Part shown: one piece after another, positions 2,972 through 11,810 of the stretch
Layout of the letters: each line of letters opens with the position of its first letter
Position numbering within the stretch: position 1 is the first letter of the stretch
DNA from: Anaerolineales bacterium
GTDB lineage: Bacteria > Chloroflexota > Anaerolineae > Anaerolineales > Villigracilaceae
NCBI GenBank assembly: GCA_016789305.1
Contig: JAEURJ010000008.1
Coordinates: 1 to 64,000, forward strand
DNA: 64,000 nt
Reading direction: 5' to 3'
Notes under the pieces: generated by a model
Database searches by the model: none
Seen by the model: only the letters and a program-made list of their open reading frames with translations
What the model was told of the DNA's origin: nothing
Translations under genes and position numbers: made by a program

Positions 2972-3502
2972 TTGGCAATTTCAAAAGAACGTAAAGAGGA
3001 AGTGCTCTCCACTTACTCTGAATGGGTCAAGAAAAGCGAAGCCGTGATTCTCGTTGAGTATACCGGCGTCAAAATGAAGGACCTGAATACCATTCGCGCA
3101 AAGATACGTGAAACCGGTGGTGAATTTCACATTGTGAAAAACACCCTGGCTCGCCGTGTTTTCGCGGATCAAGGAATGGACCTGCCCAAGGATTATCTTG
3201 TCAAGTCCACAGCGATCTCTTTCGCATTCAATGATCCCGCTTCCACCGCAAAAGCATTGACCGATGCAACAAAAGGCAATGAGTTCATCAAGGTAAAAGG
3301 CGGTTTCATGGGCGGCAAGTCGCTCAATGCAAATCAGGTCAAGTCCCTGTCTGAAATGCCCCCGCTTCCCGTTATGCGCGCAACGCTTTTGGGCGTACTG
3401 CAGGCTCCAGCCAGCAAACTCGTGCGCACACTGGCAGAACCCGCTCGCGGTCTCGCAGCAGTGGTCAAGGCACGTTCAGAGAGCGCACAGGCTTCGGCCT
3501 AG
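2972..3502 (+). CDS. rplJ: 50S ribosomal protein L10
   Basis: A 176-residue L10. The start is TTG at 2972 with a perfect AAAGGAGGT eight bases upstream. The open frame runs back to 2852 but that part is the structured leader. Family segments include YTGVKMKDLNTIRAKIRETG, FHIVKNTLARRVF, and a C-terminal helix ending RSESAQASA where L12 dimers attach. L10 anchors the L7/L12 stalk to 23S rRNA next to L11. Confidence 0.95.
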   Translation: MAISKERKEEVLSTYSEWVKKSEAVILVEYTGVKMKDLNTIRAKIRETGGEFHIVKNTLARRVFADQGMDLPKDYLVKSTAISFAFNDPASTAKALTDATKGNEFIKVKGGFMGGKSLNANQVKSLSEMPPLPVMRATLLGVLQAPASKLVRTLAEPARGLAAVVKARSESAQASA

Positions 3503-3580
3503 TTATCGAATTCTGTGAGAATATCTCTCACCCAATATCGTCCAATTCAAAAATAATTACTTAGCAAGGAGTGCTAAACA

Positions 3581-3961
3581 ATGTCTGACAAGCTCGAAAA
3601 ACTCGTTGATGAACTTTCCACCCTGTCCGTACTCGAGGCCGCTGACCTCGTCAAGAAACTCGAAGAGAAGTGGGGCGTTTCCGCCGCTGCTCCTGTCGCT
3701 GTTGCTGCCGTTGGCGGCGCTGCTGCTTCCGCTGAACCTGTCGAAGAGAAGACCGAATTCGATGTGGTCATCAAGGATGCAGGTGCCAAGAAGATTGACG
3801 TCATCAAGGTCGTTCGCCAGTTGACTTCCCTCGGCCTTGGCGAAGCCAAGACTTTGGCTGAAACCGCTGGCTCCAAGGTCCTCACCGGCGTTGGCAAGGA
3901 TGCCGCTCAGGATGCCAAGAAGAAGCTCGAAGAAGCCGGCGCTTCCGTCGTCGTCGAGTAA
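3581..3961 (+). CDS. rplL: 50S ribosomal protein L7/L12
   Basis: A 126-residue L7/L12: an N-terminal dimerisation domain ([20 protein letters not shown]), an Ala/Val-rich hinge around residues 35-55, and the C-terminal factor-binding domain with [20 protein letters not shown] and [10 protein letters not shown]. It recruits elongation factors to the ribosome. AAGGAG lies upstream of the ATG. A strong terminator follows at once, so the ribosomal operon ends here and does not read into rpoB. Confidence 0.97.
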
Positions 3962-3981
3962 TTTCACGGATTTTCAAACAA

Positions 3982-4010
3982 AAAGACGGCTCTTCGGAGC
4001 CGTCTTTGCA
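3982..4010 (+). terminator. Intrinsic terminator of the rplKAJL operon
   Basis: An 11-bp perfect stem, AAAGACGGCTC (3982-3992) with GAGCCGTCTTT (3997-4007), closed by a TTCG tetraloop. The T run is short because part of it lies in the stem. It separates the ribosomal block from the ubiquitin-like operon. Confidence 0.9.
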
Positions 4011-4051
4011 TTTAAGTAAACTGACCTGGTACCAATATCCTACGCCACAAG

Positions 4052-4080
4052 TTGACTCTCAGGGAGGAAATTCCTATAAT
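4052..4080 (+). promoter_or_regulatory. Promoter of the ubiquitin-like operon
   Basis: TTGACT at 4052-4057 and TATAAT at 4075-4080 are separated by 17 bases, close to the sigma-70 consensus. The expected transcription start is near 4087, leaving a leader of about 32 bases before the GTG of the first gene. Confidence 0.8.
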
Positions 4081-4086
4081 CGCTTC

Positions 4087-4099
4087 ATTGGTCTGACCA
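4087..4099 (+). promoter_or_regulatory. Candidate GntR/FadR-type operator
   Basis: ATTGGTCTGACCA contains the perfect palindrome TGGTC-T-GACCA (4089-4099), which fits the TGG-N5-CCA operator pattern of the FadR subfamily of GntR repressors. It lies seven bases after the -10 box, on the expected transcription start, where a bound repressor would block initiation. The first gene of the operon encodes a GntR-type winged helix, so autoregulation is the simplest reading. Confidence 0.6.
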
Positions 4100-4118
4100 C
4101 CATACCACAGGAGCCGCC

Positions 4119-5768
4119 GTGAAAATTCAACCGATTACCCATAAAACTCTTGCAGAAGCCGTCGCTGGGAAGCTCGCTGGCTCACTCCTTGATGGCAGTC
4201 TCCAACCCGGTGCACAGCTTCCCCCAGAGCGTGAATTAATCACAAAATTTGGCATTAGCCGCTCGACGCTGCGCGAGGCCTTAAAGATGCTTGAGAATAA
4301 TCAACTGATCGAGTCACGCCCAAATGTGGGCTGGTTCGCTCTCGAGATCAACGATTCAAATCTGACAGAGGCGAAGGAACTTTCGGGTTCATCGAATCAG
4401 GCTGAACGTCAGACCCGAAACGAGCCGCCAACAGGTCCGATCAGATTGCCAGTCCACATTGAAAAGCCAATTCACATCCCAAATCTTAGCAAGGACCGTC
4501 AAGGTACTTTTGATTTCATCTCCTGGTGGGATCGCGATAAAGTGCGAAATGCAAAGGTGCTGGTGATCGGGGCTGGTGCGTTGGGCAACGAAGTCATCAA
4601 GAATCTTGCATTGATGGGGATCGGCCATATCTTCATCGTCGATTTTGACAAGATCGAAGCGGCTAACTTAAGTCGTTCGGTGCTTTTTCGCGAAGCGGAT
4701 AATAATCGCAGCAAGGCTGAGATCGCAGCTGCACGTGCAAAATCGGTAAACCCGGATATTCATGTGCAGTATCTGAACGGTGATGTGACTACCCAGCTTG
4801 GCCTTGGAATTTTTCGCCGCATGGATGCGATCATCGGCTGTCTCGATAATCGTGAAGCACGGCTTGCCGTTAATCGTTTTTGTTATTGGATGAACAAGCC
4901 GTGGGTGGATGGTGCGATTCAAGAATTGCTAGGATTGATGCGCGTCTTTGTGCCGGGGCAGGGTGCCTGTTACGAATGTACGCTCACCGAGCAGGCAATT
5001 CGCGACCTGTCGTTGCGTTATTCATGTCCGCTGCTTGCACGTCAAAATATTTTGCTTGGAAAAGTTCCAACCACGCCAACGATTGCCTCGATCATCGGAG
5101 GAATGCAATCGCAGGAGGCCTTGAAGATCATCAACAGCATGCCCATTGAGCCAGGCAAAGTGACTCACTTCAACGGCATGGTTAACATGATGCATACCAC
5201 TGCATATTCACCCCGTGAAGATTGTGAATCGCACTGGACCTATGGCGATGTGACCGAATTGCCGGCCCGTGTCGAGCGGACGACTCTTGATGACCTGCTC
5301 CGCATTGCCTGTGCAGATCTTGGCTTGAACGCGGTACTTGAATTGGATCAGGAATTGATCACGAGGCTCGAATGTCCGAATTGCCATACAGCGGAAGAAA
5401 TTGTACGCCCATTAAGTGAAGTGACTTTTGAAGCCGGGCATTGTCCAACCTGCGGTGTTTTGCGTGAAGCCAGCCTGACCCACATTATTACTGGCGATGA
5501 ATCGTTTCTACACCGGACTTTAGCCAGTGTAGGTGTTCCGCCTCTTCACATTATCCGTGCTCATAATGGAGAAGAATATCGGTTTTATGAATTAAGCGGT
5601 GATCTTGAAGAAGCCCTTCATTTCCGCCACTTTGACTCCACGGTGAAATTAGATACGAAATCACAGACTTCCCGCATTCGTTTGAAAGATAAGGTGAAAA
5701 TCAAGGATAAGGATAAAGAAGCTCCCCTTGTTATCAAGCCGCGTGGACGTGTTCGCCTGCGCGATTAA
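4119..5768 (+). CDS. E1-like ubiquitin-like activating enzyme with N-terminal GntR winged helix
   Basis: A 549-residue protein starting with GTG, with GGAG five bases upstream. Residues 8-74 are a GntR-family winged helix-turn-helix (LPPERELITKFGISRSTLRE). Residues 135-350 are a ThiF/MoeB/E1 adenylation domain: glycine-rich loop GAGALG (151-156), acidic D175/D177, R186, K199 and D243. C284/C287 and C419/C422 plus C442/C445 are CxxC pairs suited to zinc. C303 (YSCP) is a candidate thioester cysteine. The tail from about 510 is Lys/Arg-rich. By family it should adenylate the C-terminal glycine of the modifier at 7618 and pass it to the E2-like protein at 6700. The fusion of a transcription-factor domain to an E1 is unusual; it could be a true DNA-binding repressor or a reused fold. 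Confidence 0.85.
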   Translation: MKIQPITHKTLAEAVAGKLAGSLLDGSLQPGAQLPPERELITKFGISRSTLREALKMLENNQLIESRPNVGWFALEINDSNLTEAKELSGSSNQAERQTRNEPPTGPIRLPVHIEKPIHIPNLSKDRQGTFDFISWWDRDKVRNAKVLVIGAGALGNEVIKNLALMGIGHIFIVDFDKIEAANLSRSVLFREADNNRSKAEIAAARAKSVNPDIHVQYLNGDVTTQLGLGIFRRMDAIIGCLDNREARLAVNRFCYWMNKPWVDGAIQELLGLMRVFVPGQGACYECTLTEQAIRDLSLRYSCPLLARQNILLGKVPTTPTIASIIGGMQSQEALKIINSMPIEPGKVTHFNGMVNMMHTTAYSPREDCESHWTYGDVTELPARVERTTLDDLLRIACADLGLNAVLELDQELITRLECPNCHTAEEIVRPLSEVTFEAGHCPTCGVLREASLTHIITGDESFLHRTLASVGVPPLHIIRAHNGEEYRFYELSGDLEEALHFRHFDSTVKLDTKSQTSRIRLKDKVKIKDKDKEAPLVIKPRGRVRLRD

Positions 5769-5791
5769 AAAGGAAGATCGAAGAACACAAA

Positions 5792-6685
5792 ATGGCAACC
5801 CGTGCTTTAACGATGAGCAATTCCCTTCCCACTGCCAATCGCCAAAGAGGCTTTACAGGTCGACTGGTCTTGTTGCTGCTGTTTGTCGCGGGTATTACTT
5901 TCTGGACGTATTTTGTGTATATCAGCCAGCATTCGATCTCGAAAATATTGATGACGGCTTTTGCCGCTTTGATGATCTCGCTGGCGGCCAGCCTTGGAGC
6001 ACGATTTCTTTTTTATAAACGCAACTGGTTTGTTCGGCTCATTACTGCCTGGGGCTCCCTGATTCTTGGTTTGTTTCTACTTGGGATCATTACAAATTGG
6101 AGAATGGGTATTGGGCCTGTTGAGTTTTGGCGGAGAACTTACGATTGGATCGAGATCGCCCAATTGGGCGGCGGAATGTTTGTCGCATTACTGGGTTTAG
6201 GTGCGTGGTGGCATGGACCTGCTGTTGCCCCGATTGCGCGCAAATCAAACCGCTCGCCCAAACACCGTCCAACTCCCGTACGTGAAGAAAGGCCACGCAG
6301 GCAGCAGCCAACTCCATCCGTTCGGTCTGAGCCGCCTCGCCTGGCTCAAACACCTGCAGCTCGAAGTTCTGGTCACAGAAATGCGGTGCAACTGAAAGTG
6401 GCAAAACAGGCGCGGGCGATAACGAGATCCGCTCCCCATGCGGAAAAGGTGGTTGTCGGACGGTTGACCAGGACGGTTCGCCCGGCCAGATTGCGGAAGT
6501 TATTTCAACGCAAGCGTGAGATGCAAATCTCCACCCATGAAGAACACCGCTGTCCGTATTGTTTGGAAGATGTCAAACGGAATGACCCGCGTGGTGTGAA
6601 GGAATGCAGTATTTGCCACACATTGCATCATGGTGACTGTTGGGATATCACCGGCATGTGCCAGGTGCCTCATCTAAATTCATAA
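5792..6685 (+). CDS. Membrane RING-like protein, candidate E3 ligase
   Basis: A 297-residue protein with four predicted membrane helices (about 24-45, 52-74, 82-101, 121-140), a disordered Pro/Arg-rich linker (150-245) and a C-terminal zinc-binding treble clef. The clef ligands are C254, C257, C272, C275, H279 or H280, C283 and C290, with the CW pair (C283-W284) seen in prokaryotic RING families described by Aravind and colleagues. Such domains dock E2 enzymes in eukaryotic E3 ligases. It lies between the E1 and E2 genes, 23 bases after the first and 14 before the second. The likely role is to bring the charged E2 to membrane or envelope targets. Ligase activity is inferred, not shown. Confidence 0.75.
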   Translation: MATRALTMSNSLPTANRQRGFTGRLVLLLLFVAGITFWTYFVYISQHSISKILMTAFAALMISLAASLGARFLFYKRNWFVRLITAWGSLILGLFLLGIITNWRMGIGPVEFWRRTYDWIEIAQLGGGMFVALLGLGAWWHGPAVAPIARKSNRSPKHRPTPVREERPRRQQPTPSVRSEPPRLAQTPAARSSGHRNAVQLKVAKQARAITRSAPHAEKVVVGRLTRTVRPARLRKLFQRKREMQISTHEEHRCPYCLEDVKRNDPRGVKECSICHTLHHGDCWDITGMCQVPHLNS

Positions 6686-6699
6686 CGGAGGAAATGAGT

Positions 6700-7548
6700 A
6701 TGCCAGATATTAATGTTTCGATCGTTTTGCCCAGCGGCGGAACCCGCGCTGCGGAAGTTCCGGATGACGTGACCATCCACGACCTAATGAGCGAGTTAAC
6801 CTCATTGCTGGAATTGCCGACCACGGGTCCCGATGGACGCCCGATGGGATACCGCCTCGACAGCAAGGCACTCGGCCGTGAATTGAAAGATGGCGAGACG
6901 CTGGCTGCGGCAGGCATCCCGGAAAATGACCGGTTGATGCTCACGGCTGATATTACTGCCGGTGGTGTGGTCTCCGTTGCAGGAAGTCCGCGGATGCGCC
7001 GATTAAAAGGCGATTTCGAATTGATGAACGAACTCGTCTCGCGTAGTGACTTGATCAGCTTTCGCTCTGTTTCCAGTGCGCCGAATCTTCCGCCTGAACG
7101 ATACATTGTGACCTTCCAATGCAAAAGCATTGTGGATGTGGATCGCGCCGGGAATCCCAAATTTGCAAATCATCACCAGGTGGAGATCTACCTGCACAAT
7201 CAATATCCGCAGCGCTGGCCGGGTATGAAATGGCTGACGCCCATCTGGCATCCCAATATTAATCATGTAAATGGAAGTGTGTGTATCGATGCTGCCTGGT
7301 GGACTGCGAGTCGTTCGTTGGATCGATTGGTCATCATGCTGGGGGAGATGTTGCAATGGAAGAACTTCCATGATGACCCGAAAAAGCCGCCCTTCCCGTG
7401 GGATGTGGAAGCGGCGCGATGGTCTCGTGAATATCGCAAGAAACACCCAAACGCTTTCCCAGTGGAGACGCGCGAATTACTTCGACCGGAACGAGTGAAG
7501 GTAAAACCCATTGAGGTCAAAAAGAAACCTGTCATTCGATTGAAATAG
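6700..7548 (+). CDS. Ubiquitin-like domain fused to an E2 conjugating enzyme
   Basis: A 282-residue protein. Residues 1-89 are a ubiquitin-like fold ending ADITAGG, about three-quarters identical by eye to the free protein at 7618. Residues from about 100 form a complete UBC domain: first helix RMRRLKGDFELMNEL, PPERYIVTF, YPQRWPGMKWL, the HPN motif at 184-186 and the catalytic cysteine C195 in NGSVCID. The spacing HPN-x8-C is one residue longer than usual. A basic tail closes it (VKVKPIEVKKKPVIRLK). The ATG at 6700 is chosen because GGAGG lies eight bases upstream; an ATG at 6694 is too close. By family it would take the modifier from the E1 as a thioester. The fused modifier could act in cis or as a docking domain. 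Confidence 0.88.
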   Translation: MPDINVSIVLPSGGTRAAEVPDDVTIHDLMSELTSLLELPTTGPDGRPMGYRLDSKALGRELKDGETLAAAGIPENDRLMLTADITAGGVVSVAGSPRMRRLKGDFELMNELVSRSDLISFRSVSSAPNLPPERYIVTFQCKSIVDVDRAGNPKFANHHQVEIYLHNQYPQRWPGMKWLTPIWHPNINHVNGSVCIDAAWWTASRSLDRLVIMLGEMLQWKNFHDDPKKPPFPWDVEAARWSREYRKKHPNAFPVETRELLRPERVKVKPIEVKKKPVIRLK

Positions 7549-7617
7549 CATGTTCATGAATGTGCATAAGCCGTGTTTATGCCAGTTGATAACGACCAAA
7601 CAAAAGGAGAAACAACC

Positions 7618-7884
7618 ATGTCTGATATCCCTGTAACACTCGTACTTCCCTCCGGGGGCAGCCGCACCGCTGAGGTGCCGGATGATGTTGTCGTCAAGGA
7701 ATTGATTCCCGAGTTGACCACTTCACTCGAATTGCCAACCACGGGTCCTGATGGACGCCCGATGTCCTATCGTATCGACAGCAAGGCACTGGGCCGCGAA
7801 TTGAAGGAAGAGGAGACTCTTTCCCAGGCGGGCATCCCACAAAACGACCGCTTGATGATGACTGCGGACGTTACCGCAGGGTAG
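7618..7884 (+). CDS. Free ubiquitin-like modifier
   Basis: An 88-residue protein with the same beta-grasp domain as the N-terminus of the E2 gene (LVLPSGG, EVPDDV, LPTTGPDGRP, DSKALGRELK). It ends TADVTAG, so the C-terminal residue is a single glycine. It is already exposed and needs no processing before activation, and it stops just short of the second glycine found in the fused copy. The start ATG has AAAGGAG eight bases upstream, the best ribosome-binding site in the operon. It most resembles the YukD/EsaB-like branch of ubiquitin-like proteins. An intrinsic terminator follows directly, which would raise its expression over the downstream genes. Confidence 0.85.
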   Translation: MSDIPVTLVLPSGGSRTAEVPDDVVVKELIPELTTSLELPTTGPDGRPMSYRIDSKALGRELKEEETLSQAGIPQNDRLMMTADVTAG

Positions 7885-7896
7885 ACCCTCTCTCCT

Positions 7897-7936
7897 CCGG
7901 GTCACCCGCTCTCGGTTTAGGGTGACCCGGCTTTTT
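7897..7936 (+). terminator. Intrinsic terminator inside the ubiquitin-like operon
   Basis: A perfect 11-bp GC-rich stem, CCGGGTCACCC (7897-7907) with GGGTGACCCGG (7920-7930), 12-base loop, followed by cTTTTT. It stands 12 bases after the stop codon of the free modifier and 20 bases before the JAMM gene. Partial read-through would give much modifier and little deconjugase, FHA and VWA protein. Confidence 0.85.
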
Positions 7937-7955
7937 CCAACGAAATGGATGCATC

Positions 7956-8609
7956 ATGGCTGGCGTAGGTATTCGCATTTCATCCCCCATCACTGAAAGA
8001 CCCAAAGTGGCTTGCATGCCTTTGGCGCGTTCAAAGCACTGGCTTTCCCCTTACGATCAAATGGGTCCGCAGAACTCCTCTATAAAAGTATTTCTTTCCC
8101 AATCCGCATATTGTCGAATTGTGATGCACGCTGGCAGTGAAATGGATGATGAAGTGGGCGGTGCATTAATAGGGCTGTGGTGCATGGATCGCGATACCGA
8201 GGAACAATTCATTGTCGTCCAACATATGCTGCCCGCGCATCATACCCGTCAAGGCAGTGTTTATTTGACTTTTACACAAGATACCCTTGTTGGCTTTCAC
8301 GAAGAACTTGAGAAAAACTTTGCCGGCAAAAGAATTGTTGGCTGGTATCACACACACCCCAAAATGGGAATCTTCCTTTCCCATTACGACACTTTTTTAC
8401 ATAATAATTTCTTCCCCGAACCCTGGCAGGTGGCGTTGGTGGTTGAACCCCATAAATCCCTCGGTGGTTTCTTTGTTCGAGACTTGGATGGAGGACTCAG
8501 CCCCACACGGTATTCCGGTTTTTATGAAATGAATGGAAATCTTGGCAGGGAGATGGTGGAGTGGAACAATCTTCAAGCAACTGAAGATGATGAAATGGAA
8601 GGAGGCTGA
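7956..8609 (+). CDS. JAMM/MPN metalloprotease, predicted deconjugase
   Basis: A 217-residue protein with an intact JAMM zinc motif: E66 (EVGGALIG), H132 and H134 (WYHTHP), S142 and D145 (HTHP-x6-S-x2-D). JAMM proteases such as Rpn11 cut isopeptide bonds behind the C-terminal glycine of ubiquitin-like modifiers. Residues 1-40 are an extra N-terminal segment. No good ribosome-binding site precedes the ATG at 7956; an internal start is possible. It overlaps nothing but is only four bases from the FHA gene. It may remove the modifier from targets or cut the fused modifier off the E2 after its AGG. Confidence 0.85.
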   Translation: MAGVGIRISSPITERPKVACMPLARSKHWLSPYDQMGPQNSSIKVFLSQSAYCRIVMHAGSEMDDEVGGALIGLWCMDRDTEEQFIVVQHMLPAHHTRQGSVYLTFTQDTLVGFHEELEKNFAGKRIVGWYHTHPKMGIFLSHYDTFLHNNFFPEPWQVALVVEPHKSLGGFFVRDLDGGLSPTRYSGFYEMNGNLGREMVEWNNLQATEDDEMEGG

Positions 8610-8612
8610 TGT

Positions 8613-9470
8613 ATGAATAGACAGATGCGTACCTATTATTACGCCGTGCTTGGTGCGATCGGTGGCTTGATCGGCTGGCAATTAAGTAATTTCCTCGGCT
8701 TGTCGATTGTGACAAATTTATACCTAAGTGAGGCAATTGTCGGCGCTCTCGTTGGTCTGGTGATCGGCCTCTTTATCGGCCTTACAGAAGGCTTGCTTAC
8801 AAGAAATATTGTTCAAGCCGTGAAATCCGGTTTGTTCAGCGCACTGCTTGGAATGATCGCGGGCGGCATTGGTTTGCCGCTTAGTGAATTCCTGTTTCAA
8901 GCGGTGGGCGCTGGCCTCCTCGGCCGTGCGTTAGGTTGGGCGATTTTCGGCCTTTTGCTCGGCCTCGCTGAAGGCGTTGTTGGAAAAAGCCAGGCTTGGA
9001 AAGGGATGCTCGGCGGTTTGATCGGCGGTGCACTTGGCGGTGTTTTGCTTGAAAGCGCGCACAACTGGTTGAAAGATCCGCTGACGGGAAAAGCCGCAGG
9101 CCTTGTGTTGCTTGGCGCTTCCGTGGGCGCATTCATTTCACTGATCGTTGTTTTGCTCTCGCGTGCCTGGCTTGAAATTACATCAGGCAAGCTCAAAGGT
9201 ACAGAGTTCATTCTTGATAAATTCATGCGTGCAGGCGGGCCTGCTATTGCAATTGGCAGCTCGCCGCTTAAATCCGAGATCGTGATTCCCGATCCGGATA
9301 TTTCCCCTCAACATGCCATGCTTACCGGCGATGGGACTGTCTTCACTCTCAAGGATATGTCTCTTTCCGGCACAACCATTAATGGAAGAAAAATAGAACG
9401 AACACAACTATCCAATGGACAAAAAATCCGCATGGGTAACACCGAAATGGTGTATCACGAAAAGAGGTAA
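8613..9470 (+). CDS. Membrane protein with C-terminal FHA domain
   Basis: A 285-residue protein. Residues 8-185 hold about seven Gly/Leu-rich hydrophobic helices with repeated GALVGLVIG-like segments, suggesting internal duplication. Residues 208-285 are a forkhead-associated domain (AIGSSPLKSEIVIPDPDISP, QHAML, TTINGRKI), a fold that binds phosphothreonine peptides. GGAGG lies upstream of the ATG. VWA follows two bases after the stop. It may link the conjugation system to a phosphorylated membrane partner. No kinase gene is seen nearby. Confidence 0.8.
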   Translation: MNRQMRTYYYAVLGAIGGLIGWQLSNFLGLSIVTNLYLSEAIVGALVGLVIGLFIGLTEGLLTRNIVQAVKSGLFSALLGMIAGGIGLPLSEFLFQAVGAGLLGRALGWAIFGLLLGLAEGVVGKSQAWKGMLGGLIGGALGGVLLESAHNWLKDPLTGKAAGLVLLGASVGAFISLIVVLLSRAWLEITSGKLKGTEFILDKFMRAGGPAIAIGSSPLKSEIVIPDPDISPQHAMLTGDGTVFTLKDMSLSGTTINGRKIERTQLSNGQKIRMGNTEMVYHEKR

Positions 9471-9472
9471 CC

Positions 9473-10600
9473 ATGCATAAAAAACTACTCCGCATCTTTC
9501 TCAGCCTGGGCCTGTTTCTGTCTTTGATGTTTTTCCCTTCACTCACAGTTTCCGCGCAGGGTGATGCGCAGGTTCGCATCACCCAGGTGGATAATTCCAA
9601 CTTTCCGAATGTGACGGTATATGTATCGGTCACTAATTCCGCTGGTGAGCCGATAGGTGTGGACCCGGCAACACTTCAAATTTCGGAAAACGGTCAACTC
9701 ATGCAACCCGTGGATATACGGGGAGGTGGCGCAGGTCAGGCCGAGCCGCTGACCACCATGCTGGTCATGGATATCTCCGGCAGCATGGATAAAAAAGATA
9801 AATTTACTGCCGCCAAGGAAGCTGCAAAAACCTACGTTAGTCAGATGCGGTCCGGGGATCAGGCAGGTTTGATCACCTTTGATTCGCAAGTACATTATGT
9901 TCAGCCAATTACAACAGATACTGCTGCTTTGACCGAGACCATTGATCTGCTTCGGACGGGCAGTGATACTGCCATGTTCAACGCATTGCTGGAAGCTGAA
10001 AAGGCATTGGTGGGCGTGTCTGGCCGTAAGTCGATCATCGTCCTCACGGATGGGTTGGATAATCAAAGCCAGGTCACCGCTGATGATGTGATCACAACCA
10101 TCGGTCCCAGCGGACTCACCATTTCCACGATTGGGTTTGGCGATGCCGGTACCGCTTCTCAAGCTGGCCTTGATGAAGCAGCGTTAAAATCCCTGGCTGA
10201 AAAATCCGGCGGGCTGTACAGCTATGCCGCCGATTCCGCTTCTTTGAGCGCCTTGTATCAGCAATATGGCCGTTCACTGCAAAGCGAATATGCGATCACA
10301 TATGTTTCCCCTGCGAGTCTGCGGGATGGTATCAATCGAAATTTAAGCGTTTCGATTTCACAAACCGGAGCTGTCACACAGGGATTGTATAACCCGGGTG
10401 GGGTGCTGCCTGAAGTAGGTGGGTCTTCCTGGGTCTTGTTTGTGAGTATGCTGGCTGGCCTGCTTCTGCTCTTGATCATTCCCACAATGATTTCCGGTGT
10501 GGGTGGTATGTTTGGCAAGTCAAAAGGCAAGGGACGTATTAAGCTGGCAAATGCTTCGCCGGGTCCAAGTGCCAGGAAGGCGAATATCAAGATTAAGTAG
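9473..10600 (+). CDS. Secreted/membrane-anchored von Willebrand factor A protein
   Basis: A 375-residue protein with a signal peptide (residues 1-28, ending TVSAQG), a short beta domain, and a VWA domain with an intact metal-binding MIDAS site (DISGS, residues 100-104; later LTDGLDNQ). A C-terminal membrane helix (about 322-343) leaves a short basic cytoplasmic tail. VWA domains bind proteins through a divalent metal. It ends the ubiquitin-like operon. It most likely displays the VWA domain outside the membrane while the tail faces the conjugation enzymes. Confidence 0.85.
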   Translation: MHKKLLRIFLSLGLFLSLMFFPSLTVSAQGDAQVRITQVDNSNFPNVTVYVSVTNSAGEPIGVDPATLQISENGQLMQPVDIRGGGAGQAEPLTTMLVMDISGSMDKKDKFTAAKEAAKTYVSQMRSGDQAGLITFDSQVHYVQPITTDTAALTETIDLLRTGSDTAMFNALLEAEKALVGVSGRKSIIVLTDGLDNQSQVTADDVITTIGPSGLTISTIGFGDAGTASQAGLDEAALKSLAEKSGGLYSYAADSASLSALYQQYGRSLQSEYAITYVSPASLRDGINRNLSVSISQTGAVTQGLYNPGGVLPEVGGSSWVLFVSMLAGLLLLLIIPTMISGVGGMFGKSKGKGRIKLANASPGPSARKANIKIK

Positions 10601-10640
10601 TTCAAAAAACACCCCACATCGTGGGGTGTTTTTTGAACTA
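10598..10640. terminator. Bidirectional terminator between VWA and VOC genes
   Basis: A perfect 20-bp stem (10598-10617 with 10621-10640) and a three-base loop ATC. The core is ACACCCCAC/GTGGGGTGT flanked by A and T runs, so it works in both directions. Both stop codons (TAG of each gene) lie inside the stem. Confidence 0.95.
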
Positions 10641-11003
10641 CGCGGATTGAAAAATCTCAATCGGGTTTCCAGACGGATCTTCTGCCAGAATCTGTTTGCC
10701 GCCGGGGCCAGTAATGATTTTGTTTCGAAATGATATTCCCGCTTTTTTCATGTCTGAAACTAGCGTCTCGATATCGTCCACTTCCACCACAAAGCGATTC
10801 CATCCGCCGGGCTGGGGTGTGCTCCCATCCGGCATGGGGCGTGCCGCGGAGGTTTGAGGGCCGCTCAGCCAAAGTTCCAGATCACCTTTTTCAATAATGG
10901 CAAAAGCTGGTCCCATTTGGTCAACGAGAGAAAAGCCCAAATGATCAACATAAAATTTAATGGATTCTTCCACATCCTTGACCATATATCGAATTGTCGC
11001 CAT
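10638..11003 (-). CDS. VOC-family (glyoxalase/bleomycin resistance-like) protein
   Basis: A 121-residue single-module vicinal oxygen chelate protein: IRYMVKDVEESIKFYVDHLGF at the N-terminus and PGGKQILAEDPSGNPIEIFQ at the C-terminus. The family includes glyoxalases, dioxygenases and drug-binding proteins. The metal-ligand positions cannot be assigned safely, so no substrate is proposed. AAGGAG precedes the ATG. It stands alone downstream of lexA. Confidence 0.85.
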   Translation of the reverse strand: MATIRYMVKDVEESIKFYVDHLGFSLVDQMGPAFAIIEKGDLELWLSGPQTSAARPMPDGSTPQPGGWNRFVVEVDDIETLVSDMKKAGISFRNKIITGPGGKQILAEDPSGNPIEIFQSA

Positions 11004-11028
11004 AGTAGATTCTCCTTGTTAAATAAAT

Positions 11029-11052
11029 ACAGCCCGACAAAAGTCAGGCTGT
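11029..11052 (-). terminator. Probable lexA terminator
   Basis: ACAGCCCGAC (11029-11038) and GTCAGGCTGT (11043-11052) form a 10-bp stem with one G-T pair and a four-base loop. On the minus strand it is followed by ATTTATTT, a weak U tract. Confidence 0.5.
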
Positions 11053-11064
11053 AACATAAATTAT

Positions 11065-11742
11065 TTAATTAAAGCGGTCCATTTTTCGAATGACCATGAC
11101 CACTTTTCCCTTGATCTCAACCAATTCATTCTTTTTGATCATGATAGGCTTCATGGTCGGGTTTGCGGGCTGCAGGCGGAAACCATCTTTTTCCTTGTAG
11201 AAATACTTGAGTGTGGTTTCGTTGCGATCAGAAAGCCAGACTGCGACCATATCGCCATTGCGTGCATCCTGAGAAGGTTTAAGGATGACGATATCACCAT
11301 CATTGACCATGGCATCGATCATCGAGTCTCCCTGTACTTTGAGTGCAAAAAGTTCCTTGCCCTTTTCTTTTCCAGGCATCAGGGATGTGGCGATTTCCAC
11401 GGAATCTTCAGGAGTGAATGACCCGAAATCTGCATTTGAAGGAACGGGAATTGGTTCACCAGCTTGAATTACACCAAGGACAGGAACACGGAGCATATCT
11501 CCAAGAGGGGTATTTCCTGTCAGGCGCATGCCGCGTGAAATCTTGCGGTCTCTTTCAAGGTAACCGCTCTTCTCCAGTTGATCCAAATAGTAGTTCACAA
11601 CAGAAGTGGAGGAGATATCACAATGCTCTCCAATCTCACGAATGGAAGGTGGGTGCTTGTGTTCTCGCTGATAGGACGCAATAAAATCCAAAATCTTTTG
11701 GTGGCGCTCCCCAATTCCTTTGCTTTTTCGAACCATCATCAT
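11065..11742 (-). CDS. lexA: LexA repressor
   Basis: A 225-residue LexA. Residues 10-72 are the winged helix (PPSIREIGEHCDISSTSVVN). The autocleavage site is A94-G95 (VIQAGEP). The catalytic serine is S140 (QGDSMID) and the lysine K179 (NETTLKYF). It represses the DNA-damage regulon and cleaves itself when RecA filaments form. The start is the first of three in-frame ATGs, with AGGAGG upstream. A GAAC-N4-GTTC box lies 69 bases upstream, so it represses itself. Confidence 0.95.
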   Translation of the reverse strand: MMMVRKSKGIGERHQKILDFIASYQREHKHPPSIREIGEHCDISSTSVVNYYLDQLEKSGYLERDRKISRGMRLTGNTPLGDMLRVPVLGVIQAGEPIPVPSNADFGSFTPEDSVEIATSLMPGKEKGKELFALKVQGDSMIDAMVNDGDIVILKPSQDARNGDMVAVWLSDRNETTLKYFYKEKDGFRLQPANPTMKPIMIKKNELVEIKGKVVMVIRKMDRFN

Positions 11743-11810
11743 TTAAGCCTCCTGCCAATAAAACTGGCATTTTGAGCTTTCTTCGCTCATTTGTGCTAGG
11801 AATGATAATC

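What the first reader, a model, noticed from the sequence alone, without database searches (positions are those of the whole stretch)
4119..10600. Complete membrane-linked bacterial ubiquitin-like conjugation operon
Seven co-directional, closely spaced genes encode an E1-like enzyme, a four-helix RING-like protein, a ubiquitin-like/E2 fusion, a free ubiquitin-like modifier, an intact JAMM protease, a membrane FHA protein and a membrane VWA protein. All catalytic motifs I looked for are intact (E1 GAGALG loop, E2 HPN and C195, JAMM E66/H132/H134/S142/D145). Computational work by Aravind and colleagues described bacterial E1/E2/JAB/RING sets, and Bil operons have E1, E2, modifier and JAB. I cannot match this seven-part layout, with RING, FHA and VWA proteins in the membrane, to a named system. 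It may modify envelope proteins.
Basis: partly seen in the sequence, partly recalled or inferred. Interest (0 to 1): 0.95.

Follow-up and report, generated by a model that had tools for sequence, protein, structure and literature searches.

The report
Self-regulating bacterial ubiquitin-like operon
In Chloroflexota bacteria, one seven-gene operon encodes a predicted complete, membrane-linked ubiquitin-like tagging pathway whose activating enzyme is fused to a predicted DNA-binding domain, and a palindrome of the matching type is conserved just upstream of the operon, so the enzyme likely controls the production of its own pathway.

Summary
In detail: seven co-directional genes at 4119-10600 encode E1, membrane RING, Ubl-E2 fusion, free Ubl, JAMM, membrane FHA and membrane VWA proteins. 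All seven occur in this order in 70 of 82 non-redundant related loci; 11 others are cut by contig ends and one lacks FHA and VWA. Catalytic residues are invariant.

The E1 begins with a GntR/FadR-type winged helix. A palindrome of the FadR-subfamily type (TGGT-N3-ACCA) lies just upstream of E1, exact in 59 of 70 relatives, against 19 copies in the other 1.14 Mb of those loci. It sits at a fixed distance from a sigma-70-like promoter. Of six exact TGGTCWGACCA sites in the window's genome it is the only one outside long ORFs. I read the E1 as the likely autoregulator of its operon.

Also new: a short basic/hydrophobic C-terminal motif shared by E1, Ubl-E2 and VWA tails (a candidate docking peptide), and a stable RNA hairpin after the free Ubl gene in most loci.

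Conjugation, repression and docking are inferred; nothing was tested biochemically. Substrates are unknown. A new variant of a known kind.

The parts
4052..4080 (+). Sigma-70-like promoter TTGACT-N17-TATAAT
   Evidence: 11 of 12 matches; a match of >=9/12 with -10 starting 14-17 bp before the operator occurs in 49 of 70 relatives, shuffled mean 0.44, max 3
4083..4105 (+). Candidate operator: FadR-type palindrome, core TGGTCTGACCA at 4089-4099; family consensus GTATnnTGGTCWGACCAnnATAC
   Evidence: exact TGGT-N3-ACCA upstream of E1 in 59 of 70 relatives, 19 in 1.14 Mb elsewhere in the same loci; column counts
4119..5768 (+). GntR-E1 fusion, 549 aa: winged helix (aa 11-73), ThiF adenylation domain with C303, four conserved Cys (C419, C422, C442, C445), disordered basic C-terminal tail with motif copies
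   Evidence: Pfam, AF2 model, conservation
5792..6685 (+). Membrane RING protein (predicted E3), 297 aa; candidate ligands C254 C257 C272 C275 H280 C283 C290 H294 (H279 is invariant too)
   Evidence: 81 of 81 each; Prok-RING_1 in 38 of 38 scanned; hydrophobic segments
6700..7548 (+). Ubl-E2 fusion, 282 aa: YukD-type Ubl (1-88, ends TAG) plus E2 with HPN and C195, C-terminal tail IRLK
   Evidence: Pfam, alignment, AF2/Foldseek
7618..7884 (+). Free ubiquitin-like modifier, 88 aa, ends Thr-Ala-Gly
   Evidence: Pfam YukD; TAG end in 77 of 78
7897..7930 (+). RNA hairpin after the free Ubl stop, followed by CTTTTT; possible attenuator or processing/stability element
   Evidence: 12-bp stem with one mismatch; the region folds with z -4.2, and 56 of 78 loci (window included) have z < -2; not listed by the generic terminator scan
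7956..8609 (+). JAMM/JAB metalloprotease (predicted deconjugase), 217 aa
   Evidence: Pfam JAB; E66 H132 H134 S142 D145 83 of 83
8613..9470 (+). Membrane FHA-domain protein, 285 aa, glycine-rich hydrophobic N-terminal part
   Evidence: Pfam FHA; conserved glycines; hydrophobic segments and changed phosphate-contact residues
9473..10600 (+). VWA protein, 375 aa: N-terminal hydrophobic segment, VWA with MIDAS-type residues (D100 S102 S104 T166 D193), C-terminal TM segment, tail NIKIK
   Evidence: Pfam/NCBIfam, conservation, hydropathy
10597..10641 (.). Terminator-like inverted repeat closing the operon
   Evidence: (listed on the - strand only) and sequence

Best explanation
This seven-gene operon is predicted to run a membrane-linked ubiquitin-like conjugation cycle, and its activating enzyme (E1) carries a predicted GntR/FadR-type DNA-binding domain that likely binds the conserved palindrome just upstream of the operon and represses it. 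Proposed working, every step inferred from sequence: (1) The E1 is a dimer like ThiF/UBA5; its two winged helices sit on the 23-bp palindrome just after the -10 element and block transcription. The adenylation core takes the place that an effector domain holds in ordinary FadR-type regulators, so binding of ATP and free modifier would be the signal that changes DNA binding. This would match enzyme supply to the modifier pool. (2) The free Ubl, ending in Thr-Ala-Gly, is adenylated and loaded on E1 C303, then on E2 C195. (3) The membrane RING protein recruits the loaded E2 and directs transfer to lysines of targets at the inner face of the membrane. (4) The JAMM protease removes the modifier, and may also cut the fused Ubl after TAG. 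(5) The C-terminal basic/hydrophobic motifs of E1, Ubl-E2 and VWA are docking peptides for one shared partner, most simply the acidic Ubl. (6) The VWA protein, with a MIDAS-type site predicted outside the membrane, gives the outside input. Shown directly by sequence: gene set and order, domain matches, invariant catalytic residues, conserved palindrome and promoter spacing, shared tail motif, presence or absence of the cassette between rplL and lexA.
For: Seven genes in this order in 70 of 82 loci; 11 cut by contig ends, 1 (L114) without FHA and VWA. GntR Pfam hit; best solved sequence is the PdhR DNA-binding domain. Residues E37, R38, R48, R52 and E53 have the spacing of the FadR contact set Glu-34, Arg-35, Arg-45, Arg-49, Glu-50 (table passage in PMC4494728) and are conserved in 72/72, 72/72, 73/73, 73/73 and 72/73 rows. 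The same paper gives the FadR-subfamily site as TKGT/ACMA boxes with typically 3 nt between GT and AC, the form found here. Palindrome exact in 59 of 70 relatives, 9 more with one mismatch; 19 in 1,140,972 bases elsewhere in these loci. Promoter at fixed spacing 49 of 70. In the window's 4.88-Mb genome the other five exact TGGTCWGACCA sites lie inside ORFs of 265-801 aa. Two loci whose E1 lacks GntR (L035, L036) have no exact site, the best one-mismatch match lying inside the ORF. E1 model nearest to UBA5 and ThiF; E2 to UBE2K/RAD6, its Ubl to ubiquitin. Tails: E2 80/83, VWA 53/69, E1 35/81 in the last 12 residues; 0 of 81 RING, 78 Ubl, 78 first JAMM and 74 FHA. Free Ubl net charge -5 to -13 in 77 of 78.
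Against: No biochemistry. Repression, as against activation, rests on the site's position only. I know of no precedent for an E1 core as a regulator's sensor domain and tested none. The AF2 monomer of Ubl-E2 leaves its tail poorly ordered (pLDDT 54-68 in the last 22 residues) and without a strand, so docking on its own Ubl is not supported. The tail motif was defined after looking at the tails, and only 35 of 81 E1s have it in the last 12 residues (73 of 81 have a slightly looser form in the last 60). Two of 70 loci have two or three mismatches to the palindrome (L066, L110). The exact long form TGGTCWGACCANNATA is missing in 4 of 9 cassette genomes searched for it, and present once in G112, which has no cassette. 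With six core sites in the genome against two for the reversed control, the core alone is not rare. The loci are related, so counts are not independent.
Confidence: 0.65

Rival explanations
1. The conjugation operon is real, but the palindrome is bound by another FadR-type regulator encoded elsewhere; the GntR domain of E1 is a relic or a dimerisation aid.
For: Sites of this type are shared by many GntR regulators (passages of PMC4494728). One same-genus genome without the cassette (G112) has a single site of the long form elsewhere.
Against: DNA-contact residues of the E1 domain are nearly invariant. Palindrome and cassette go together: the 9.2-9.5-kb stretches around lexA from 8 same-genus genomes without the cassette have no exact site in 7 and one about 7 kb from lexA in the eighth; the two loci whose E1 lacks GntR have no exact site. 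Of six exact core sites in the genome only this one lies outside long ORFs.
Confidence: 0.12
2. It is an anti-phage defence system like Bil or type II CBASS: the modifier is put on phage or immune proteins. (This can be true together with autoregulation.)
For: Characterised bacterial systems of this type appear to act primarily in defence (statement in PMC12687455, passages seen). The cassette is present in only 3 of 11 same-genus genomes searched and is lost or gained as a block. RING evolves fastest: 29-43% identity to the window in the six loci aligned over most of its length, where fused Ubl-E2 has 70-83%.
Against: PADLOC gives E1 and JAMM only generic E1-E2/JAB-type hits plus a weak BilD hit, RING one weak hit, and nothing to Ubl-E2, Ubl, FHA or VWA. 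In about 20 of 84 loci it sits beside rplL and lexA. No nuclease or cyclase is among the seven genes; flanks were clustered, not annotated.
Confidence: 0.3
3. Noncovalent signalling complex: the YukD-like Ubl and E2 act as scaffolds, and no covalent transfer occurs.
For: Ubl is of the YukD family, and Bacillus YukD is reported not to be conjugated (passage of PMC1779556). The modifier ends in a single Gly, not Gly-Gly, in 77 of 78.
Against: E1 C303 75/75, E2 C195 and HPN 83/83, JAMM site 83/83 and Ubl G88 78/78 would not need to be kept.
Confidence: 0.08
4. Sulfur-carrier (ThiS/MoaD-like) pathway with a JAMM for maturation.
For: E1 is of the ThiF fold, and automated names call it adenylyltransferase/sulfurtransferase.
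Against: A canonical E2 and a RING have no known role in sulfur transfer (general knowledge); no sulfur-metabolism gene is among the seven. The flanks were not searched for one.
Confidence: 0.02

Closest known systems
Candidatus Caldiarchaeum subterraneum ubiquitin operon (PMC5654768, passages seen)
   Same: Ubiquitin-like modifier, E1, E2 and RING protein encoded together with a JAMM/Rpn11 beside them; E2 there is auto-modified on a C-terminal lysine, and here E2 keeps a C-terminal Lys in at least 90% of aligned rows.
   Different: Small RING protein; diGly modifier made from a pro-form. No GntR domain, FHA, VWA or Ubl-E2 fusion is mentioned in the passages seen.
Bil (BilABCD) operons (PMC11354881, passages seen)
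   Same: Ubl, E1, E2 and JAB/JAMM in one operon.
   Different: BilD has an inactive plus an active adenylation domain; this E1 has one ThiF domain and a GntR domain. The four-gene set has no RING, FHA or VWA.
UBA5 (E1 of UFM1)
   Same: Nearest fold in PDB by Foldseek (chains named UBA5); single adenylation domain. Recalled, not from a call: homodimer with short C-terminal tail motifs that bind UFM1 and its E2.
   Different: No DNA-binding domain (recalled); eukaryotic.
FadR/PdhR-type GntR regulators
   Same: Winged helix, contact residues and operator type.
   Different: The C-terminal effector domain is replaced by a ubiquitin-activating enzyme core.
SUMO E1 subunit SAE2 and SENPs with SUMO-interacting motifs (PMC12687455, passages seen)
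   Same: Cascade enzymes carry short motifs in flexible extensions.
   Different: Here the motif is basic, and its partner is unknown.

Membership tests
Bacterial ubiquitin-like conjugation operons (general kind) | E1, E2, Ubl and JAMM genes linked, catalytic residues kept | tested here: met
Bacterial ubiquitin-like conjugation operons (general kind) | Covalent transfer of the modifier to protein | not testable with these tools
   needs biochemistry
Bil (BilABCD) | E1 BilD with inactive and active adenylation domains | tested here: not met
   one ThiF domain only, GntR in front; definition from PMC11354881 passages
Bil (BilABCD) | Matches of PADLOC Bil models to the set | tested here: not met
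   only a weak BilD hit to E1, 26.1 bits, among the 25 of 33 families shown for E1
Type II CBASS E1-E2 fusion (definition recalled) | E1 and E2 in one polypeptide, linked CD-NTase | tested here: not met
   separate genes; no CD-NTase among the seven
FadR subfamily of GntR regulators | GntR winged helix with the FadR contact residues | tested here: met
FadR subfamily of GntR regulators | Operator with TKGT/ACMA boxes, GT and AC 3 nt apart | tested here: met
   by sequence, not by binding:
FadR subfamily of GntR regulators | Subfamily-type C-terminal effector/oligomerisation domain | tested here: not met
   ThiF domain instead
Prok-RING_1 (PF14446) | Profile match | tested here: inconclusive
   38 of 38 scanned (of 81 held) at E <= 0.05, best 6.1e-12, but the window's protein is under the curated cut-off (18.1 v 29.1 bits)
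Prok-RING_2 (PF14445), recalled as the RING of ubiquitin-linked bacterial operons with TM helices | Profile match | tested here: not met
   0 of 9 genomes over cut-off; no listed hit at a cassette
YukD (PF08817) | Profile match | tested here: met
   free and fused Ubl over cut-off
YukD (PF08817) | Linkage to type VII secretion | tested here: inconclusive
   no such gene among the seven; the flanks were clustered but not annotated
Canonical phosphothreonine-binding FHA | Arg, Ser and Asn phosphopeptide contacts (recalled from Rad53 FHA1; register assigned by eye) | tested here: not met
   Arg position is Ser in 74/74; Ser position Ser in 6/74; Asn position mostly S/A/K/T

The most novel reading that the evidence does not exclude
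A ubiquitin-activating enzyme that is itself the transcription factor of its pathway: its adenylation core acts as the sensor domain, so that loading with modifier and ATP lifts it from the promoter. Conjugation capacity would then be set by a direct enzyme-to-DNA feedback. E1, E2 and the VWA membrane protein are wired together by one repeated basic, SIM-like tail motif, giving a transmembrane ubiquitin-like signalling machine driven by an extracytoplasmic VWA sensor.
Probability: 0.35. Interest if true: 0.93.

Novelty: new variant of a known kind. Interest (0 to 1): 0.86.

Why it matters
The first enzyme of a ubiquitin-type cascade here carries a DNA-binding domain with a conserved candidate target before its own gene, which makes feedback from modifier charging to transcription directly testable with one protein and one DNA fragment. 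The set also brings E1, E2, a membrane RING, a modifier and a JAMM together in bacteria with two further membrane proteins. It occurs in genomes of named strains (Pelolinea submarina MO-CFX1, Leptolinea tardivitalis YMTK-2), so that membrane-linked ubiquitin-like signalling could be studied in a bacterium.

Tried and rejected
Defence-system membership: PADLOC gave only generic E1-E2/JAB hits and weak ones. Prok-RING_2 membership: rejected. Docking of the E2 tail on its own Ubl: not seen in the AF2 monomer; the alignment used for it (A2: window, 81 of the 82 full-length E2 proteins, and 2 of the small layout) held L034, whose E2 has no fused Ubl and whose N-terminal ORF extension is noise. A wider regulon for the E1: the other five exact sites in the genome lie inside ORFs; sites with mismatches were not scanned genome-wide. 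Tail motif elsewhere in the genome: a degenerate DNA search (17 hits, reversed control 11; not all Leu codons covered, so that the Ubl-E2 end itself is not recovered) gave, as ends of ORFs of 60 aa or more, the VWA end and two others (140 and 273 aa) that I do not find convincing. Functional neighbours: among the 25 largest flank clusters only the rplL/lexA site and its flanks recur widely, in up to 20 of 84 loci. Gene conversion between fused and free Ubl: not supported, since 68 of 75 fused copies group apart from the free ones, but six fused copies and L078 place with the free side. Rfam: no hit at gathering score in 3500-11800. Hairpin as a plain terminator: only 10 of 78 loci reached my terminator score, so attenuation is unproven.

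Literature: searches. One search (at least four of GntR, ThiF, ubiquitin-like, fusion, helix-turn-helix) listed five papers, none of whose titles or abstract starts describes this fusion. Not held and not read: Burroughs 2011 on prokaryotic RINGs (DOI recalled), Koonin and Yutin 2014, Burroughs 2012, Nunoura 2011, Chambers 2024, Gong 2025, Ye et al.. I therefore cannot exclude that parts of this operon were listed there. PMC4327156: abstract and outline only.

Full report
1. Observation. The window holds the seven ORFs as described, at 4119-10600, all on the + strand. The operon has its own promoter-like site (TTGACT-N17-TATAAT, 4052-4080, 11 of 12 matches) and closes with an inverted repeat at 10597-10641. 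Upstream is nusG-rplK-rplA-rplJ-rplL, downstream on the other strand a glyoxalase-like ORF and lexA (gene names from the sequences, recalled; their conservation in relatives is).

2. Conservation. A search of 400 genomes of the phylum found the Ubl-E2 or E2 in 12 at E <= 1e-10. A scan of genome contigs with an alignment of 11 sequences found 309 confirmed relatives, of which the best 80 were kept; as far as their record titles tell, those 80 are Chloroflexota. Two of these (L035, L036) are a different, smaller layout: E1 without GntR, Ubl, E2, two JAMM genes. Of the other 82, 62 have the order E1-RING-UblE2-Ubl-JAMM-FHA-VWA, five have the same with a second JAMM, and three more have all seven on inspection: L034 (E2 not fused to Ubl), L078 (an over-long FHA ORF runs over JAMM) and L082 (free Ubl partly N). 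Eleven are cut by contig ends, and L114 lacks FHA and VWA with 9.3 kb of sequence downstream. So 70 of 82 show all seven genes in order.

3. Catalytic residues. Over the aligned families, window included: E1 C303 75/75; E2 HPN and C195 83/83; JAMM E66, H132, H134, S142, D145 83/83; RING C254, C257, C272, C275, H280, C283, C290, H294 81/81; VWA D100 69/69, S102 68/69, S104 68/68, T166 68/68, D193 68/68. Free Ubl ends in TAG in 77 of 78 and in ADVTAGGR in one. The fused Ubl has TAG in 82 of 83 rows, the other being unfused L034, and TAG is followed by A, G or S in 81 of those 82. That would suit a protease site but is no proof of one. In a tree of 75 fused and 75 free copies, 68 fused copies group together and seven place with the free side, so both lineages are old, with exceptions.

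4. The E1 is a GntR fusion. Residues 11-73 match PF00392 at 9.7e-19, and the best solved sequence is the PdhR DNA-binding domain. A search with E1 residues 1-130 listed the best 120 of 695 hits; the listed ones carry both PF00392 and PF00899, and names given by sources are 'adenylyltransferase/sulfurtransferase', 'GntR family' and the like. In FadR the DNA-contact set includes Glu-34, Arg-35, Arg-45, Arg-49 and Glu-50 (table passage of PMC4494728). E37, R38, R48, R52 and E53 of this E1 have the same spacing and are conserved in 72/72, 72/72, 73/73, 73/73 and 72/73 rows.

5. The palindrome. I noticed TGGTCTGACCA at 4089 in the window and then tested relatives. Of 70 other loci with an E1 start and at least 150 bp before it, 59 have exact TGGT-N3-ACCA within 250 bp upstream. 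In these it starts 21-50 bp before the start codon (one further copy lies farther up); the rest of the same loci has 19 in 1,140,972 bases, or 0.004 per 250 bp. Of the other 11, nine have one mismatch, one two and one three. The column counts extend the site to GTATnnTGGTCWGACCAnnATAC, with the right half better kept. A -35/-10 pair of at least 9 of 12 with the -10 starting 14-17 bp before the palindrome occurs in 49 of 70; shuffles gave a mean of 0.44 and a maximum of 3. The published FadR-subfamily consensus is TKGT/ACMA with typically 3 nt between GT and AC. In the window's genome TGGTCWGACCA occurs six times, the reversed control twice; five of the six lie inside ORFs of 265-801 aa and one before E1. 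The long form TGGTCWGACCANNATA was found in 6 of 20 genomes searched: in 5 of 9 with the cassette, there at the cassette, and in 1 of 11 without it (G112) (places compared).

6. Cassette as a block. Of 11 same-genus genomes, the window's included, 3 have it. In the eight without it, lexA lies next to rplL in seven and beside other genes in one; none of the eight stretches matches any of the seven genes. Seven have no exact TGGT-N3-ACCA, and one has it about 7 kb from lexA.

7. Shared tail motif. The pattern [IV][RKH][ILVF][KRH] in the last 12 residues occurs in 80 of 83 E2, 53 of 69 VWA and 35 of 81 E1 proteins (shuffled means 4.5, 2.7 and 3.1), and in 0 of 81 RING, 78 Ubl, 78 first JAMM and 74 FHA. 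The five second JAMMs end near GRIKL- or RVRIKL-like stretches. The motif was chosen after seeing the tails. Free Ubl is acidic, so a basic SIM-like docking peptide is my preferred reading; AF2 gave no support in the monomer. Flexible extensions of the SUMO E1 and SENPs with SIMs are a known parallel (PMC12687455 passages).

8. Hairpin. The 70 nt after the free Ubl stop fold with z below -2 in 56 of 78 loci, window included. A raised modifier level relative to JAMM, FHA and VWA is one reading; it is not tested.

9. Structures. The AF2 model of Ubl-E2 (84 rows, mean pLDDT 81.8) finds UBE2K, RAD6 and UBC5-type E2s and ubiquitin. The AF2 model of E1 (62 rows: window, 59 of the 72 full-length E1 proteins, 2 of the small layout; mean pLDDT 82.2) finds UBA5, ThiF and MccB, while its sequence profile finds UBA7, UBA1 and SAE2 first.

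10. Judgement. Core cascade: very likely. E1 as DNA-binding regulator of its own operon: likely. Repression rather than activation, and sensing through the adenylation core: plausible, untested. Docking by tails: plausible, untested. Substrates and physiology: open; defence is the main rival for the physiological role and could hold together with autoregulation.

Noticed in passing
L092, L099, L105, L108, L109: Five loci carry a second, longer JAMM gene whose C-terminus bears the same kind of basic/hydrophobic motif as the E1, E2 and VWA tails.
   Followed up: partly
L035:6559-11058 and L036:7048-11639: A smaller sister layout, E1 (no GntR) - Ubl - E2 - JAMM - JAMM, without RING, FHA or VWA next to it.
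   Followed up: partly
L034:152-6760: In a more distant genome the E2 has no fused Ubl although all seven genes are present in order, so the Ubl-E2 fusion may be a later addition.
   Followed up: partly
window 3581-11742 and L148-L155: The rplL-lexA junction is a recurrent site of the cassette in close relatives; rplL and lexA are neighbours in seven of eight same-genus genomes without the cassette.
   Followed up: yes
L154:2771-5842: Repeated ORF fragments with the same short peptide look like a translated repeat array, possibly CRISPR, beside lexA.
   Followed up: no
L114:11976-15417: The one cassette without FHA and VWA is followed by two long ORFs with similar C-termini and, by eye, transporter-like ORFs.
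   Followed up: no
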